The notes under the pieces: generated by a model
What the model was told of the DNA's origin: nothing
Database searches by the model: none
Seen by the model: the letters and a program-made list of their open reading frames with translations, nothing else
Translations under genes and position numbers: made by a program
Source: Cyanosarcina radialis HA8281-LM2
GTDB lineage: Bacteria > Cyanobacteriota > Cyanobacteriia > Cyanobacteriales > CCAP-1448
Assembly (NCBI GenBank): GCA_019359615.1
Contig: JAHHHA010000041.1
Coordinates: 1-53,853 of the forward strand
DNA: 53,853 nt
Direction: 5' to 3'
Shown here: in pieces, positions 46,302 through 53,853 of the stretch
How the letters are laid out: every line of letters starts with the position of its first letter
Numbering within the stretch: the stretch's first letter is position 1

Positions 46302-46625
46302 TCAGGCTAGTAGCGGTAAAACTCTCTTCTTCAGTAACTCAACTAAAACTGGTTCCATATACTCATATTCGTCAGGAATATCTAAGCAAATCACTCGTTT
46401 ATTTTTTAACCAAGGCTGAAACTTATTTGATAGTTTGCTGCGGTGCGACTTCTCCATTACAAAAATGATATCTGCCCATTCGATCGCCTCACTAGATAAA
46501 GGCATTTCTGCATCTCGATCGAGTCCGGCTGAATCTACTTCTAAACCCTCATACTCAGCAAATACAGCTTCGGCTGTTGGGCTACGCAATCGATTTCGAC
46601 TGCAAATAAATAATAATTTCTTCAT
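46302..46625 (-). CDS. Low-molecular-weight tyrosine phosphatase-like protein
   Basis: 107 residues from ATG 46625; an upstream start at 46634 is possible. The phosphate-binding loop is C8-x5-R14-S in 'ICSRNRLRSPTAEAVF', as in LMW protein tyrosine phosphatases, and a possible general acid lies in 'IPDEYEYM'. It is shorter than classic LMW-PTP (about 150 residues). Its start codon overlaps the stop of the macrodomain gene (ATGA, 46622-46625), so the two are translationally coupled. A phosphatase working on a macrodomain ligand, such as ADP-ribose phosphate, is an inference from that coupling. A 22-codon copy of its 5' end lies at 50761-50826. Confidence 0.82.
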   Translation of the reverse strand: MKKLLFICSRNRLRSPTAEAVFAEYEGLEVDSAGLDRDAEMPLSSEAIEWADIIFVMEKSHRSKLSNKFQPWLKNKRVICLDIPDEYEYMEPVLVELLKKRVLPLLA

Positions 46626-47209
46626 CCTTCCCAAATTTGTAGTTGTCTGGATGCAGCGACAAAGCAGTTAAGCAATTTTGGCGGATACAAAAAATAGTCG
46701 TAGGCTAAAGCCATTTGCCTCGCAGCTTCATCATCTGGTACTCGACCGATTCCGGTTCCCAATCCGGGGCAAACAACACTTTTAATTGGGTTTTGAGAAT
46801 ACTTGTTGTGCTGTCGAACTGCTAACAGCATTGCCCACATCGCCACATAAGGAATATCTGTACCTTTAATAATCATTGGCACTCGCATAGTAGGAGTATG
46901 TGCTAGAAAAGGATGTTTGGGATGCCCAGTTTCGATAATAAATGATGTGCCAACTGGTTGTTCGCCCAAATAATCTTCGAGAATTCGTTGCTGAACTCGA
47001 TCCATCAAAGAGCGATCGAAAAACTTAACGATCGCAGCATCCATTCCACCATCCATCATCCCAAAGGAATTTGCCGGACTGACCAGACAATCAAATTCTT
47101 TCACCCACTCGAAGTAGTTATTAACTACCTCAACATTAGGAAAATGAGCAAAGTGTTCTTGAAAAGTAACGGACAGCGAGGCGTGAGGTGCTACTAGAAT
47201 TAATTTCAA
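46622..47209 (-). CDS. Macrodomain protein (ADP-ribose binding)
   Basis: 195 residues. A macro (Appr-1-p processing) domain: 'CLVSPANSFGMMDGGMDAAIVKFF' supplies the adenine and ribose loops with 'NSFG..DGG', and 'VVCPGLGTGIGRVPDDEAARQMALAY' the distal-phosphate loop (each in part). Such domains bind or hydrolyse ADP-ribose derivatives on proteins, nucleic acids or as free metabolites. It is single-domain, cytoplasmic, and upstream of the coupled phosphatase. Possible roles: removing ADP-ribose 1''-phosphate, or reversing ADP-ribosylation in a toxin or defence setting. No ART-type toxin is visible nearby. Confidence 0.92.
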   Translation of the reverse strand: MKLILVAPHASLSVTFQEHFAHFPNVEVVNNYFEWVKEFDCLVSPANSFGMMDGGMDAAIVKFFDRSLMDRVQQRILEDYLGEQPVGTSFIIETGHPKHPFLAHTPTMRVPMIIKGTDIPYVAMWAMLLAVRQHNKYSQNPIKSVVCPGLGTGIGRVPDDEAARQMALAYDYFLYPPKLLNCFVAASRQLQIWEG

Positions 47210-47279: not shown

Positions 47280-47630
47280 CTAGTTTGTTTCACCCGTACC
47301 AAAGTCAGTAAACTGGGGGACTTCAGGTTCGTGAAATGCCAGCACGATATCTTGCTTAGGCACTCCCATTTCTACCAGTTGATTCGCAATTCCGACTTCC
47401 GTTCCATCATGTTGAATCCAAATTTTTCCGGCTTTGATATCCAGATGCAAAACACAGCCAAAATCCCGCTTATGGCCTCGCCAGCCCACATAAAGTAGTT
47501 GATAATGGTCCCTTTCGGTATCAAAAATGGTCTGGATCTCATATTCCCGTGCGTTTCGTTGTTTTGATGCCCGTTCGGCACGCTCCGAAAGAATCTGTCG
47601 AATATATTGTCGATAATGTTCTACAGCCAT
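47280..47630 (-). CDS. xisI: XisI family protein
   Basis: 116 residues. Recognised as XisI (fdxN element excision controlling factor) from 'VEHYRQYIRQILSE', 'FDTERDHYQLLYVGW', 'HLDIKAGKIWIQHDGTE' and 'IVLAFHEPEVPQFTDFG'. In heterocystous cyanobacteria XisI and XisH help XisF excise the fdxN element, but XisH/XisI-like pairs are widespread in genomes without it, and their general role is unknown. Start ATG 47630 has AGGAGG upstream, within the remnant of xisH whose stop codon overlaps the beginning of xisI. The partner is reduced to a fragment, so this XisI is an orphan. Confidence 0.95.
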   Translation of the reverse strand: MAVEHYRQYIRQILSERAERASKQRNAREYEIQTIFDTERDHYQLLYVGWRGHKRDFGCVLHLDIKAGKIWIQHDGTEVGIANQLVEMGVPKQDIVLAFHEPEVPQFTDFGTGETN

Positions 47631-50057: not shown

Positions 50058-50375
50058 ATGACCGAATCAATTTCAAAACCATCTAAACGACGAGGCAGAA
50101 TCTTTCCCGAACGGACTTTATCGCCGGAAGAACTAGCTAGAAGTAAGGCCGAACGAGAAGCATTTCGTCGGCGGTGTCGAGCAATCTTTGAGCGAGTACG
50201 ACCAGAATTAATCGATAAATACTATGGCTGGTATATTGCTGTTGAACCAGATAGTGGTGATTATTTCATCGATCGAGATCTAGAAGTAGCCAGTCAAAAA
50301 GCACGAGATAAACACCCGAACGCCACGCACTGTGTGTTTTGCCTCAATGAATCTGGAACTACTGGCAGCATATGA
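50058..50375 (+). CDS. Small basic protein coupled to aspartic protease-like gene
   Basis: 105 residues. A basic, helical N-terminal half ('SKPSKRRGRIFPERTLSPEELARSKAER') precedes 'YYGWYIAVEPDSGDYFIDRDLEVASQKARDKHP', a pattern frequent in small cyanobacterial proteins that precede an aspartic protease-like gene. No catalytic motif is seen. Its stop overlaps the next start as ATGA (50372-50375), so the two are translated together. A toxin-antitoxin-like or regulatory role for the pair is only a possibility. Confidence 0.75.
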   Translation: MTESISKPSKRRGRIFPERTLSPEELARSKAEREAFRRRCRAIFERVRPELIDKYYGWYIAVEPDSGDYFIDRDLEVASQKARDKHPNATHCVFCLNESGTTGSI

Positions 50376-50740
50376 TTGGGGGGACATTTGGCAGCCGTGG
50401 CGAGTTATTTTTTGAAATTGAATTGATTGCTAGTAACGGATTAAATGTACCTGTAGATGCCATGCTAGATACTGGTTTTACAGGGTTTTTAGCCATTAAT
50501 AAACTAGACTTAGATGTTCTCAACTGGCAGTTTCTCCGCGAACAAGAATTACAAACCGCACAAGGAGAAGCATTTTTTGATATTTATTTAGGCAAAGTTG
50601 TAATAGATAAACAAGAGTATGAAATCCCAGTTTTGACCGGAGATGAGATTACTGAAATATTGCTTGGTTCAGAGTGGTTAAAGCTCTTGCCTTTGGTGGT
50701 AAATTACCAAACTGGTATCCTGACGTTAGGATCGAAGTAA
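50372..50740 (+). CDS. Clan AA aspartic protease-like protein
   Basis: 122 residues, single-domain, of the retropepsin-like family. The catalytic motif is 'AMLDTGFTGFLA' (D33-T-G), followed by the flap-like strands and 'LLGSEWLKLLPLVVNYQTG', which corresponds to the second conserved hydrophobic-Gly motif. Such proteins work as homodimers, each chain supplying one Asp. Coupled to the upstream basic protein, which could be its substrate or partner. The gene converges with the phosphatase fragment, overlapping it by about 37 bases. Confidence 0.9.
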   Translation: MIGGTFGSRGELFFEIELIASNGLNVPVDAMLDTGFTGFLAINKLDLDVLNWQFLREQELQTAQGEAFFDIYLGKVVIDKQEYEIPVLTGDEITEILLGSEWLKLLPLVVNYQTGILTLGSK

Positions 50741-50826
50741 GAGGAGCGATCGCACTTAGAAAACACAGCTTCGGCCGTGGGACTGCGTAATCGATTTTGA
50801 CTGCAAATAAATAATAATTTCTTCAT
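50704..50826 (-). pseudogene. 5' fragment of a second phosphatase-like gene
   Basis: A 40-codon frame beginning 'MKKLLFICSQNRLRSPTAEA'. Over 50762-50826, 58 of 65 bases match the 5' end of the intact phosphatase gene (46561-46625). Six of the seven differences inside or near codons are silent and one changes Arg to Gln in the phosphate-binding loop. After codon 22 the similarity ends and the frame runs into the aspartic protease gene. It follows the nuclease gene stop by nine bases on the same strand. Confidence 0.8.
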
Positions 50827-50835
50827 CTTGGCTAT

Positions 50836-52272
50836 CTACATAAGTAAATCACGGAGAAAATAAAAGCGATCGCGCCGCCAATCTTCTCCTTTCTTGCGCC
50901 CTAAATACCCTGCCAAAGGTGAAGAAAGTTCAATCAAAATTTCATTTAATTCTATAGAAGACAGCCGTTTAGGAAAATTAGAAATACTATATGCTCCATG
51001 AATTGCTTCAACTCCTGCACATTCTTTATGGGTATTTTCGAGGTAATTTTTTAATACTTGGATAACGTGCGATCGCAACCTAATATCTTGAGACACTTGT
51101 TCGATATATTTTGTGACATCTTCATCAGACTTTCCAGCTTTTAGATATTCTTTTAGCTTGAACAAATCTACTGAGTTGCGATAGTTATTTTGCAGTTTCA
51201 CTAGCTTCTCAAGAGTTTCAGAATTAATGATAGCCATATTATGAATTGTTGCCGCGTCTAAAAGTTGTTGTGTAGGTTCACCTGGACCAATAATTAATTT
51301 AGTAGATTGCTGAAAATCTTTTTTATTGAGGCGTAATGTTCCTAGATTCAGTAGTTGCACTGCGGTATCATTGGGAATTTTTTTGCCAGATTTACATTCT
51401 CCAATTAATGGATATGGTTTTGAACAGAATACATCTACACCACCTGCACCTCCTTTGTGATAAGAGTCAACTGTAAATCCCAAAAAATCAAGACTCTTAC
51501 GGACTATATTTTCAAAGTCTGTTCCAGCTTGATAATTGCTTTTTCCTTCATCTTCTTCTTTGCTGCGATCGCCCAACTTAGCAATGTCATTTATCCAAGT
51601 TAAAACTGGTTCAGGTTGCTGAATATGTTCGCCACTCCAACCTAAAAATACTTGGATATCGCGCTCTAATTTTTTAGCATCTAGATTTGTGATAGCAAGA
51701 GAAGAGATTGTACCCTGCAATTCCTCTAATTCAGGATGCAGTGGTGGGAGTCGATCTTTTAGCTGTTTTAAGCGTTTTTTAAAGGTATTGTTGCTTAGAA
51801 TAGGTGTTCCTTCAGCCGCACTCAAGGTAGGTAAGAAAGGAACAAACTGATTGCCAATATCTCCCAGAATAGATACCTGAAGAGGCTGCGGCAGCTTATA
51901 TACGTGCATATAAGCTAGAAAAATATACTCACGCTGCTTGATAATTTTCTGTAAAGCTTCAGTTGTCCATACTGTTAATAAGGACAAATCTTTTAGAGGT
52001 TTGCTCTTATCTATTATTTCACAAAGTTCGCATTTTGCCCAAGCTTTAATTATAGGTTTATTAGGATTGAGTCGAGCCAAAGTTGCTTGAGCAGTCGATA
52101 AAAAACTAGATCGATAGTATTCGTTAATTGGTAGTATATTTATTGAGGTATCTGAGGCATAAAGAGCAAACTCCCCTGGATCGATGAATAAGTGTGATAT
52201 AGCAACAATCGTTCGACCTTGAATCAAACCTTCAATTTCTGGCGCTGGTAAACATAAAGCAGTATCAATCAT
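50836..52272 (-). CDS. PD-(D/E)XK nuclease of a predicted ATPase-nuclease pair
   Basis: 478 residues. The N-terminal 240 residues form a domain I do not recognise ('APEIEGLIQGRTIVAISHLF'). Residues 248-320 form a restriction-endonuclease (Mrr-like) core: E254 in 'AGTDFENIVRKSLDFLGF', D280 in 'GGAGGVDVF', E292-x-K294 in 'IGECKSGKK', followed by 'AVQLLNL', and a Rossmann-like strand 'STKLIIGPGEPTQQLLDAA'. The last 130 residues are helical. It should cut DNA. The start overlaps the end of the ATPase gene by eight bases, so the two are coupled, as in restriction or defence systems. Codon use is AT-richer than in neighbours, consistent with transfer. Confidence 0.82.
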   Translation of the reverse strand: MIDTALCLPAPEIEGLIQGRTIVAISHLFIDPGEFALYASDTSINILPINEYYRSSFLSTAQATLARLNPNKPIIKAWAKCELCEIIDKSKPLKDLSLLTVWTTEALQKIIKQREYIFLAYMHVYKLPQPLQVSILGDIGNQFVPFLPTLSAAEGTPILSNNTFKKRLKQLKDRLPPLHPELEELQGTISSLAITNLDAKKLERDIQVFLGWSGEHIQQPEPVLTWINDIAKLGDRSKEEDEGKSNYQAGTDFENIVRKSLDFLGFTVDSYHKGGAGGVDVFCSKPYPLIGECKSGKKIPNDTAVQLLNLGTLRLNKKDFQQSTKLIIGPGEPTQQLLDAATIHNMAIINSETLEKLVKLQNNYRNSVDLFKLKEYLKAGKSDEDVTKYIEQVSQDIRLRSHVIQVLKNYLENTHKECAGVEAIHGAYSISNFPKRLSSIELNEILIELSSPLAGYLGRKKGEDWRRDRFYFLRDLLM

Positions 52273-53853
52273 CGGTTAATCCTTCAGGAATCTTACCAGT
52301 TGGTTCGCTTAAAATAGCATGAATAAGAGAATTGTCAATTACTAATTTTCTATTATGAATAAAATCTATGATTTCCTCAAGAGTTACCTGATAATCTTCG
52401 CGACCACTATAAACAAACCAGATAGCTAGGAGAGGCTTAATGTCTTCTGCACTCAACAATACCCATTTACCACCGCAACCAGCCGATAGAAATTTTTCTA
52501 AATTCTGTTTTGCCTCAACAGGAGAATTAGTAATTTTTCTAGAACGCACTAAACACCCATAAGTTATATCAAATGTTTGGTAATTAACTATACGTTTTAG
52601 TACAGCCTTTACAGATTGCCAGTGAGTCTTCTGAAAAACAGCTACTCCAATTTTTATTATTTTACTGTCTTGATTGCCAATAATTTTGAAATCAAAGCAA
52701 TTTTCTCCACCAACTTTATTTTTGTTTTCTGGCTTAATTGGTTCAATGCCCTCTATTTTAAATTTGTCTATTTGCTTACCAATTAGCGTTTTGAAACTTT
52801 CCTGAATAGCATTAGCCAGTTGATATTTATCATCTAACCAAAGTTGTCTAGAGCTTTCTAAGAGGGATAGTTCCTTATTATATGCAAATTCAACAGGATG
52901 TTCTTTGGGTGTAACATAAGGAGCAAATTTATCTGCACATGCTTTTAAAATTTCTCGTACAGAGTTACCATCACCCAACTCTCTTAAAAAACTTTCTTCA
53001 AATGGATAAATTTCAGTAGGAGGATTTAAATTATTTTGCTGATAAAACTCTGCTAACCAAAGCTTTACTAACTCAACGATCGCATCACCATCCATAAAGT
53101 CTAAATTAATCGGCTCTTTTTTGGCTGAAACTCGATCTGGTACTCCACCAGGCATCTGTTTTATTTTTTGCGTCCATGTATCAGGCATCATCACCGTGAG
53201 AATGACAACACCATGACAAGTGGTAGTAGGTAAATTAATACTATCAACTAGAGTCTTAATTAAACTTGCAACAATATGCGGTTTTGCCAAACCTGTTTGA
53301 CTACGGCTCTTATCAGGTAAATCTAGTTCATCAAAACAAATTATCAGTGGTTTATAGAGGCTAACTAAGCTCAAAATTTGCTGGATATGGTCAAAAGCTT
53401 TTGCTTCTGAGTTACGTAAGTCTGCACTCAAGTTTGGTAAGCTTAGCTCGTGGCTTTTATTTTCCGATAATTCCTTGCCAGATAACCACTTAATTGCATA
53501 AAGTACGTGAGATTCTGAAAGTGTCCAAAAAATAGCTCGGATAAGATCTGGATCGAATCTTTCTCTTCGGTAAATTCGACTAAACTTATCTGTAATTAAG
53601 TCAATCCATTGAGATAGTTTTTCTAGGTGTGTGTTTGACTTATTAAAATTTGCCACTAAATTTTTAGCAGTATAAGTTTGAGCATTATGATTCCCTGCTT
53701 TCCATACTTGATTAGCCATAAATGTGGCTAGTGCAGCGTGGCGAAAATAAGTGACCAGCTTAAGCGGGTTCGGGAAACCCCTGAAATTTCCAGACAAAAG
53801 GTTTAGCCAAAGTGCGGTTGAAGTAGTCAATAAAATCAAGAATCTTCTGCGTG
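52265..53853 (-). CDS. P-loop ATPase of a predicted ATPase-nuclease pair (partial)
   Basis: At least 524 residues; the frame stays open to the window edge, so the start and the Walker A loop lie outside. A Walker B is visible: 'KPLIICFDELDLPDKS' (Asp and Glu near codons 53332-53327), followed by 'VVILTVMMPDTW', a sensor-like strand typical of STAND/ORC-type ATPases, and 'LGDGNSVREILKACADKF', a winged-helix-like tail motif. The last 150 residues have a restriction-fold look ('IIKIGVAVFQKTHW', 'TFDITYGCLVRSR'), perhaps a degenerate nuclease or DNA-binding domain. It is coupled by overlap to the nuclease downstream. A DNA-sensing, nucleotide-driven activator of that nuclease is an inference. Confidence 0.75.
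   Translation of the reverse strand, partial: RRRFLILLTTSTALWLNLLSGNFRGFPNPLKLVTYFRHAALATFMANQVWKAGNHNAQTYTAKNLVANFNKSNTHLEKLSQWIDLITDKFSRIYRRERFDPDLIRAIFWTLSESHVLYAIKWLSGKELSENKSHELSLPNLSADLRNSEAKAFDHIQQILSLVSLYKPLIICFDELDLPDKSRSQTGLAKPHIVASLIKTLVDSINLPTTTCHGVVILTVMMPDTWTQKIKQMPGGVPDRVSAKKEPINLDFMDGDAIVELVKLWLAEFYQQNNLNPPTEIYPFEESFLRELGDGNSVREILKACADKFAPYVTPKEHPVEFAYNKELSLLESSRQLWLDDKYQLANAIQESFKTLIGKQIDKFKIEGIEPIKPENKNKVGGENCFDFKIIGNQDSKIIKIGVAVFQKTHWQSVKAVLKRIVNYQTFDITYGCLVRSRKITNSPVEAKQNLEKFLSAGCGGKWVLLSAEDIKPLLAIWFVYSGREDYQVTLEEIIDFIHNRKLVIDNSLIHAILSEPTGKIPEGLTDD

What the first reader, a model, noticed from the sequence alone, without database searches (positions are those of the whole stretch)
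50836..53853. Overlapping ATPase-nuclease pair that may be an undescribed defence module
Two AT-rich minus-strand genes overlap by eight bases. The upstream one has a Walker B followed by ORC/STAND-like features and runs off the window. The downstream one has an Mrr-like PD-(D/E)XK core (E254, D280, E292, K294) after a 240-residue N-terminal domain that I do not recognise. Overlapping ATPase plus nuclease is a common plan for phage-defence operons, but I cannot assign this pair to a named system. Nearby lie a macrodomain/phosphatase pair, a decayed xisH, a protease pair and a gene fragment, as expected in an accessory island.
Basis: partly seen in the sequence, partly recalled or inferred. Interest (0 to 1): 0.8.

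Follow-up and report, generated by a model that had tools for sequence, protein, structure and literature searches.

The report
Module-swapping cyanobacterial ATPase-nuclease locus
Two overlapping genes at the end of this piece of a cyanobacterial genome look like the broken remains of an undescribed three-gene ATPase-nuclease system, probably antiviral, whose parts are swapped like interchangeable cassettes between related species while the DNA around them stays alike.

Summary
The pair is real, but the copy in the window is broken. The last 126 bases are the end of an IS630-like element found at ten contig ends of this genome, so the ATPase lacks about 137 N-terminal residues including Walker A. 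The nuclease is intact: a DUF1802 domain (predicted PUA/ASCH-like fold), a PD-(D/E)XK core and a C-terminal domain. In other cyanobacteria the intact form is a three-gene operon: a ~220-aa gene, a ~620-aa AAA+ ATPase and this nuclease (ATPase upstream in 79 of 80 fetched loci, small gene in 76; all misses are cut off by a contig end). No PADLOC model matches the window proteins, and DUF1802 occurs in one paper of the library searched.

Main finding: in loci flanked by the same chromosomal genes, ATPase + DUF1802 and the nuclease core are exchanged as separate blocks between near-identical genomes, and the C-terminal domain partly so, while flanks, most of the small gene and a linker follow the species. 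Of 33 close pairs, 16 are mosaic.

Best reading: an ATP-dependent nuclease immune system whose sensing and cutting modules diversify by recombination. Defence is inferred, not shown. I rate it a new variant of a known kind.

The parts
50836..52272 (-). Intact gene of the DUF1802-PD-(D/E)XK nuclease (478 aa + stop), third gene of the operon
   Evidence: ATPase homologue upstream in 79 of 80 homologous loci
51748..52272 (-). DUF1802 domain (residues 1-175); predicted PUA/ASCH-like fold; residues 1-146 belong, loosely, to the exchange block of the ATPase
   Evidence: PF08819 E 2e-23; VIA-align Z 10.1 to 6kir, 9.0 to 2dp9, 8.3 to ZmASCH; blocks
51565..51834 (-). Linker (residues 147-236): backbone segment that correlates with the small gene and with flanking genes, between two exchange blocks
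51112..51564 (-). PD-(D/E)XK nuclease core (residues 237-387; E254, D280, E292, K294); exchanged independently of ATPase and DUF1802
   Evidence: each catalytic residue 78 of 78; residues 223-395 match FokI / N.BspD6I at Z about 13
50929..51111 (-). C-terminal domain (residues 388-448), a further exchange block, partly coupled to ATPase/DUF1802 by allele class
50839..50928 (-). Conserved tail (residues 449-478)
52265..53728 (-). Truncated AAA+ ATPase gene (487 aa left, equivalent to residues 138-617 of the intact paralogue at G000:C28:272204-274057); Walker A lost, Walker B at about 53321-53341
53728..53853 (-). End of an IS630-like insertion sequence at the contig end; interrupts the ATPase gene
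   Evidence: ten copies in the genome, all at contig ends; common boundary; IS630/DDE_3 matches of a relative's copy
50058..50740 (+). Convergent neighbour pair (105-aa unknown + 122-aa aspartyl-protease-like); relatives lie near the nuclease in about a quarter of loci; membership in the system unproven
   Evidence: families c12 in 25 and c14 in 22 of 80 loci

Best explanation
This is the IS-disrupted remnant of a cyanobacterial three-gene nuclease system, most likely an anti-phage or anti-mobile-element system. In intact operons the small protein (weak winged-helix signal) and the AAA+ ATPase (ORC/Cdc6/TnsC-like fold, Walker A and B conserved) probably form an ATP-driven recognition complex. 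The PUA/ASCH-like DUF1802 domain of the nuclease docks on it or reads nucleic acid (inferred). Recognition then lets the PD-(D/E)XK core cut DNA (activity inferred from residues and fold). Shown here: the conserved operon, the residues, the predicted folds, and recombinational exchange of blocks between loci with the same flanking genes. The small protein's C-terminus, the ATPase and, more loosely, DUF1802 travel together, so these parts probably touch and set specificity (inferred). The nuclease core is swapped independently of them, as expected if the effector evades inhibitors (inferred). In this genome the system is probably dead: the small gene and Walker A were not found.
For: Operon: ATPase upstream on the same strand in 79 of 80 loci (homology gap up to 300 bases in 72, at most 1.5 kb), small gene before the ATPase in 76 of 80; the misses are cut off by a contig end. 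In 194 phylum genomes 32 have a strong nuclease match (over 130 bits), 31 of them with the ATPase adjacent and 29 with all three genes adjacent (counted by hand from the listed places). Catalytic E254/D280/E292/K294 each 78 of 78; Walker A G, G, K and Walker B D each 71 of 71. Folds. Exchange: among 33 pairs with pgi identity >= 0.95, ATPase is < 0.70 in 25 and >= 0.85 in 8, nuclease core < 0.70 in 11 and >= 0.85 in 13; 16 of 33 pairs are mosaic. Allele classes in 35 loci: ATPase-DUF1802 AMI 0.74 (0 of 500 shuffles reach it), ATPase-core 0.09 (26 of 500), DUF1802-core 0.06 (63 of 500); 32 distinct combinations. In 16 loci with markers on both sides, flank genes correlate with each other (rho 0.67-0.92) and with the small gene (0.58-0.79) but not with ATPase or DUF1802 (-0.12 to 0.05). 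DNA identity of seven pairs falls from about 85-97% to about 47-75% and returns within the operon. Diversification of sensor and effector of this kind is typical of conflict systems (established knowledge, recalled).
Against: No experiment. No plasmid, phage or viral-contig relative of the nuclease, and no viral-contig relative of the ATPase. No PADLOC match for the window proteins, only marginal ones for two homologues. About half of the loci sit among genes I read as housekeeping and part of the operon is inherited with them, unlike a typical defence island. The blocks are not perfectly independent: the C-terminal domain shares class information with ATPase (AMI 0.33) and DUF1802 (0.45), both 0 of 500 shuffles, although their Mantel r is about 0; ATPase-DUF1802 is only r 0.39 by Mantel; DUF1802 correlates weakly with pgi in 35 loci (0.21), the core with pgi (0.23) and, in 16 loci, with the flanks (0.32-0.44). 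PUA-like folds also serve RNA metabolism, and no base-binding pocket was tested. No self-protection gene was identified, but only two loci were read gene by gene.
Confidence: 0.6

Rival explanations
1. Abortive-infection sensor: the STAND-like ATPase recognises a phage protein (with the small protein as adaptor), oligomerises and switches on the nuclease, which degrades host and phage DNA. DUF1802 is a docking domain, not a reader.
For: ATPase fold matches ORC and TnsC (Z 13-15) and, a little lower, RdrA (12.5) and the NRC4 resistosome (12.4); weak profile similarity of one intact ATPase to NF053860 'DS41_1 anti-phage protein' (E 3e-6, 26 bits against a cut-off of 370), which I take from its name to belong to the system DS-41 of PMC13092281 (passages); the small protein's C-terminal domain is shared with a protein in the structural region of cyanophage PaV-LD and with three viral contigs.
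Against: No sensor-repeat family in the Pfam scans of intact ATPases; ORC/TnsC-like folds are DNA-binding; the DUF1802 domain has a nucleic-acid-reader fold.
Confidence: 0.25
2. Modification-dependent (type IV-like) restriction: DUF1802 reads a modified base in invading DNA and the FokI-like core cuts, with the ATPase translocating or licensing.
For: Architecture PUA-like + PD-(D/E)XK; Foldseek's best hit of the whole nuclease is MspJI (E 4e-4, but TM-score 0.17). EVE/ASCH/PUA domains are known or predicted sensors of modified bases, some fused to nucleases (PMC7641849 passages; start of abstract of PMC7897488).
Against: Reader fold only predicted; the MspJI match is not a global superposition; no binding pocket tested.
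Confidence: 0.3
3. Not defence: a chromosomal DNA-maintenance module (ORC-like ATPase plus repair nuclease) inherited with its neighbours.
For: Shared flanking genes and species-like backbone in about half of the loci; EndoMS-like matches of the core at Z about 9.
Against: Patchy (32 of 194 genomes); at least six of 80 loci look disrupted (my reading; sequencing errors not excluded); exchange down to about 40-55% identity between species with 97-98% identical pgi, which a housekeeping enzyme should not need.
Confidence: 0.15
4. Self/non-self or kin-discrimination locus between cyanobacterial strains, in which allele differences rather than phages drive diversification.
For: High allele diversity between the same flanks (32 combinations in 35 loci).
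Against: The genes that recur with the operon are only the three and, in a quarter of loci, the c12/c14 pair; secretion signals and immunity genes were not searched for.
Confidence: 0.07

Closest known systems
MspJI and other PUA-superfamily modification-dependent endonucleases
   Same: N-terminal PUA-superfamily-like domain plus PD-(D/E)XK core
   Different: Here in a three-gene operon with an AAA+ ATPase and a small protein; DUF1802 rather than an SRA-like domain (that MspJI has one is recalled); no modification dependence shown
McrBC (type IV restriction)
   Same: NTPase plus PD-(D/E)XK nuclease in adjacent genes; a reader domain in the complex (recalled)
Anti-phage protein DS41_1 (NF053860) and the Sll1717 ATPase family (NF047389)
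   Same: Weak profile similarity of the AAA+ region of an intact homologue (E 3e-6 and 8e-9)
   Different: Far below both curated cut-offs (26 against 370 and 35 against 75 bits); partner genes not compared
Tn7 TnsA-TnsC
   Same: TnsC-like AAA+ fold (Z 15.1, tied with ORC and Cdc6); FokI-like nuclease core (that TnsA is FokI-like is recalled)
   Different: No transposase family was seen to recur beside the operon; no plasmid or phage relatives of the nuclease; the conserved third gene is the small protein
Specificity-domain shuffling of type I restriction HsdS (recalled)
   Same: Conserved segments flank variable segments that are exchanged by recombination
   Different: Here ATPase, reader-like domain, nuclease core and C-terminal domain are exchanged, over two genes and the end of a third

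Membership tests
Pfam DUF1802 (PF08819) | Profile match above the curated cut-off | tested here: met
   83.5 bits against 25
PD-(D/E)XK nucleases | Fold and invariant E, D, ExK residues | tested here: met
   78 of 78 for each residue; predicted topology and FokI/HindIII matches at Z 10-13
PUA/ASCH superfamily | Fold similar to solved ASCH proteins | tested here: met
   Predicted model only: Z 10.1 (6kir), 9.2 (5y7d), 9.0 (2dp9), 8.3 (ZmASCH), 7.9 (YqfB), 7.7 (TRIP4 ASCH) over 94-147 residues. That CXorf40A/EOLA1, TTHA0113 and YqfB are ASCH-type is recalled; no sequence match found
PUA/ASCH superfamily | Binding of a modified base | not testable with these tools
   Needs biochemistry
AAA+ ATPases | Walker A and Walker B in intact homologues | tested here: met
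   71 of 71; AAA_16 above its cut-off in four of five homologues scanned
AAA+ ATPases | Walker A in the window copy | tested here: not met
   Lost at the IS junction; not found elsewhere in the genome
McrBC type IV restriction | McrB and McrC family domains | tested here: not met
   No such Pfam or NCBIfam match
Named systems of PADLOC-DB 2.0.0 | Match to a component model | tested here: not met
   No family for the window proteins or for two small proteins and two operon ATPases; E 0.002-0.03 matches only for the C28 paralogue and one homologous nuclease. Systems published after 2023 are not covered
DS41_1 anti-phage protein (NF053860) | Match above the curated cut-off | tested here: not met
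   26.4 bits against 370
Tn7-like transposition modules | Conserved TnsB-type transposase in the operon | tested here: inconclusive
   The families that recur directly beside the nuclease are ATPase and small gene; no profile search for TnsB was run
Anti-phage defence systems in general | Protection against phage | not testable with these tools
   No experiment

The most novel reading that the evidence does not exclude
A chromosomal immune locus built as a chassis with exchangeable cassettes: most of the small gene, a linker and the extreme C-terminus of the nuclease are inherited with the chromosome, while a sensor cassette (small-protein C-terminus + AAA+ ATPase + PUA-like DUF1802) and effector cassettes (nuclease core; C-terminal domain) are replaced by homologous recombination. 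Innate immunity thus diversifies combinatorially without moving, and at least one cyanophage carries the small protein's C-terminal domain, possibly as trigger or decoy.
Probability: 0.4. Interest if true: 0.85.

Novelty: new variant of a known kind. Interest (0 to 1): 0.72.

Why it matters
Many defence systems are found because they sit in mobile defence islands. In about half of the loci seen, this one instead lies between the same chromosomal genes, and its proteins are recombined block by block between species. That gives a natural set of swapped sensor and effector alleles on near-identical backgrounds, so specificity can be tested directly. It also gives DUF1802, a Pfam domain of unknown function, a predicted PUA/ASCH fold and a testable role.

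Tried and rejected
Read-through idea: the 528-aa ORF with its TTG start was first taken as the ATPase; rejected because its first 41 residues are translated IS end.

Pseudo-nuclease idea: the ATPase C-terminal region (about 440-575) has a helix-strand order like PD-(D/E)XK without ExK; profile comparison with the nuclease core gave nothing (probability 0.1%) and the domain was not folded alone, so I do not claim it.

Sequence searches against solved structures gave only chance-level matches; YTH-domain rows for the ATPase profile (E 0.012) were treated as chance.

Mobile spread: no plasmid or phage match for the nuclease, none in viral contigs for nuclease or ATPase; the ATPase was not searched in plasmids. 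Defence genes around the loci were not scanned with PADLOC.

Search for the lost small gene in the own genome: none with the family profile at E <= 1e-8; a second search with its C-terminal part was also empty, but the tool warns that this alone shows nothing.

Sampling limits: the 80 loci are the best of 252 found, so they lean to close relatives; all 80 are cyanobacteria by their record titles, the other 172 were not seen. For the exchange analysis rows were dropped by length or truncation: 77 nucleases, 71 ATPases, 69 small genes and 38 pgi of 80 loci remained, 35 with all four, 16 with all flanking markers. Many records are MAGs, but a clear mosaic also occurs between two records not marked MAG, L047/L078 (ATPase 0.87, DUF1802 0.90, core 0.61), and a milder one between L069/L075 (C-terminal region 0.73, the rest 0.89-0.99). 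Pairs of loci are not independent; Mantel and label shuffles were used. 'Allele classes' are single-linkage groups at 0.8 identity, and loci that share recent ancestry share classes for that reason too.

Exceptions to pairing in 194 genomes: solo ATPases on C28 of the own genome, in G038, and a second one in G010; small gene without the others in G055, a small-gene fragment in G164; G168 and G188 have the parts on separate short contigs.

Literature: DUF1802 appears in one paper, on soil microbial networks (PMC6155114, listing only). PMC7641849, PMC12839542 and PMC13092281 were read as passages; all others only as search listings or starts of abstracts. The library holds open-licence papers only.
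Full report
WHAT IS IN THE WINDOW. The window is one complete contig, C26, of a 6.5-Mb genome in 65 contigs. All 80 fetched relatives of its nuclease are cyanobacterial by their record titles, so I treat the genome as a cyanobacterium. On the minus strand lie a 478-aa nuclease gene (50836-52272) and, overlapping it by eight bases, an ORF that reaches the contig end (52265-53851). The N-terminal domain of the nuclease is Pfam DUF1802 (E 2e-23).

THE UPSTREAM GENE IS BROKEN. The last 126 bases of the contig recur at 100% identity over 121-126 bases at nine other places in the genome, each at a contig end. In the seven places whose flanks were printed the shared stretch begins at the same CTAG. 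It carries the end of a transposase frame; an 83%-identical copy in a relative matches IS630-family and DDE_3 models. ATPase homology begins there, at residue 138 of an intact 617-aa paralogue on contig C28 (54% identity). The lost part contains Walker A. Neither that part nor the third operon gene described below was found elsewhere in the genome, so they were deleted or lie in an assembly gap. The C28 paralogue has no DUF1802 nuclease beside it.

THE INTACT SYSTEM HAS THREE GENES. In 80 fetched loci (best of 252), an ATPase homologue lies upstream of the nuclease on the same strand in 79; the exception is cut off inside the nuclease. The homology gap is at most 300 bases in 72 of the 79 and 1.5 kb at most. 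A third gene of about 220 aa precedes the ATPase in 76 of 80; the four misses are all cut off by a contig end. In L091 an insert of over 1 kb separates small gene and ATPase. In 194 genomes drawn evenly from the phylum, 32 have a strong nuclease match (over 130 bits); 31 of them have the ATPase adjacent (the other nuclease starts at base 124 of its contig) and 29 all three genes adjacent (counted by hand from the listed places). Exceptions are listed under Tried and rejected. One locus, L054 (Oscillatoria sp. PCC 10802), carries three nuclease genes and four ATPases within 18 kb; two nucleases are close (core 0.85), the third is 39-40% identical to them in the core.

DOMAINS. The nuclease model (mean pLDDT 82) matches FokI, N.BspD6I and HindIII over residues 223-395 (Z 10-13) and, with residues 1 to about 160, ASCH/PUA-type proteins: CXorf40A Z 10.1, EOLA1 9.2, TTHA0113 9.0, Zymomonas ASCH 8.3, YqfB 7.9 (that the first three and YqfB are ASCH-type is recalled). 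Foldseek's single hit below 0.001 is MspJI, a modification-dependent enzyme (recalled), with a TM-score of only 0.17. The ATPase model (L048, mean pLDDT 89) has an AAA+ core tied between TnsC, ORC and Cdc6 (Z 13-15). E254/D280/E292/K294 are each 78 of 78; Walker A G, G, K and Walker B D are each 71 of 71. The small protein has only weak winged-helix signals (E 0.08 and 0.016).

NOT A NAMED SYSTEM. PADLOC gives nothing for the window proteins and only E 0.002-0.03 matches for the C28 paralogue and one homologous nuclease. NCBIfam gives weak similarity of one intact ATPase to the Sll1717 family and to the DS41_1 anti-phage protein, far below the cut-offs. DUF1802 occurs in one paper of the library (listing only); further searches found no description.

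CASSETTE EXCHANGE BETWEEN THE SAME FLANKS. In about half of the loci, mostly heterocystous genera by their record titles, the operon lies between genes that I recognise by eye as mraY, mutM, psaE, ndhO and a malate/lactate dehydrogenase on one side and pgi, livM and livG on the other (families in 30-42 of 80 loci; names not from a family search; some loci are too short to show flanks). For 35 loci with pgi and all three genes I compared modules. Among 33 pairs with pgi identity >= 0.95, the ATPase is < 0.70 in 25 and >= 0.85 in 8, and DUF1802 has the same counts; the core is < 0.70 in 11 and >= 0.85 in 13; the C-terminal domain < 0.70 in 18 and >= 0.85 in 12. The tail is never below 0.84, the small gene's main part never below 0.78, the linker below 0.70 once. 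16 of 33 pairs are mosaic, with one module >= 0.85 and another < 0.70. A window-by-window correlation map shows blocks: small-gene windows 0-5 correlate with pgi; its last window and the whole ATPase form one block, with DUF1802 more loosely attached; the linker (147-236) and, more weakly, the tail correlate with the small gene and pgi; core and C-terminal domain form further blocks.

CONTROLS AND RESULTS AGAINST. With markers on both sides (16 loci), flank genes correlate with each other at 0.67-0.92 and with the small gene at 0.58-0.79, with ATPase and DUF1802 at -0.12 to 0.05, with the core at 0.32-0.44 and the C-terminal domain at 0.15-0.23. In 35 loci Mantel r with pgi is 0.67 for the small gene, 0.43 linker, 0.32 tail, 0.28 C-terminal domain, 0.23 core, 0.21 DUF1802 and 0.00 ATPase. 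Allele classes: ATPase-DUF1802 AMI 0.74 (0 of 500 shuffles reach it), ATPase-core 0.09 (26), DUF1802-core 0.06 (63), core-C-terminal domain 0.13 (9), but ATPase-C-terminal domain 0.33 and DUF1802-C-terminal domain 0.45 (0 each). So the core is the clearly independent block; the C-terminal domain is only partly independent. The 35 loci hold 32 combinations.

DNA LEVEL. Seven pairs were plotted in 150-base windows. L101/L102: upstream flank, small gene, ATPase and DUF1802 89-98%, core 67-75% with an 88% edge, C-terminus 92-93%, downstream a gap and then 84-98%. L082/L098: upstream flank and small gene 84-94%, ATPase 47-70%, DUF1802 63-65%, linker 81-89%, core to tail 89-97%, then 87-97% downstream before homology ends. 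Point mutation cannot give this; recombination between divergent alleles can.

HOW IT MOST LIKELY WORKS. Shown: three genes kept together, conserved ATPase and nuclease residues, predicted folds, exchange blocks. Inferred: the parts that travel together (small-protein C-terminus, ATPase, DUF1802) form one recognition assembly; ATP use by the AAA+ ring on recognition activates or positions the nuclease; the core varies independently because it need not match the ATPase but may have to escape inhibitors. Whether the trigger is modified DNA read by DUF1802 or a phage protein cannot be decided here. A hint: the small protein's C-terminal domain also occurs in ORF078R of cyanophage PaV-LD, which lies between genes annotated as capsid and virion structural protein, and in three IMG/VR contigs, in one of them near a portal gene.

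VERDICT. A disrupted copy of an undescribed, conserved three-gene ATPase-nuclease system of cyanobacteria, probably defensive, with unusual block-wise diversification between constant flanks. The window copy is probably inactive. Main doubts: no functional test, predicted folds only, a sample biased to close relatives, and blocks that are not all fully independent.

Noticed in passing
L135:4410-5696, L137:1770-4388, L136 (match only); PaV-LD 53341-53595 (L138:4001-4255): The C-terminal domain of the small operon protein (about residues 134-240) occurs in two tandem copies in proteins of viral contigs L135 (near a portal gene) and L137, in L136, and in ORF078R of cyanophage PaV-LD. Possible trigger, decoy or shared adaptor domain.
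   Followed up: partly
50058-50740; families c12/c14 in 25 and 22 of 80 loci: An aspartyl-protease-like gene with a 105-aa partner lies convergent, directly downstream of the nuclease here and near it in about a quarter of the loci, although the next genes differ. One closer (51%) and four distant copies of the 105-aa gene exist elsewhere in the genome.
   Followed up: partly
50740-50826 (-): A fragment that reads MKKLLFICSQNRLRSPTAEAVFSK, like the start of the LMW-phosphatase-like gene at 46302-46634, lies directly downstream of the nuclease: probably a partial duplication.
   Followed up: no
G000:C32:162442-162996: A stand-alone DUF1802-like gene (frame of 230 aa) exists in the same genome; matches of this size occur in a number of other cyanobacteria of the sample. 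Their role is unknown.
   Followed up: no
L054:3429-21149: Oscillatoria sp. PCC 10802 carries three nuclease genes and four ATPase genes of this family close together, a possible source of cassettes.
   Followed up: partly
47280-47630: XisI homologue (PF08869, E 7e-43); no neighbouring xisH was tested for.
   Followed up: no
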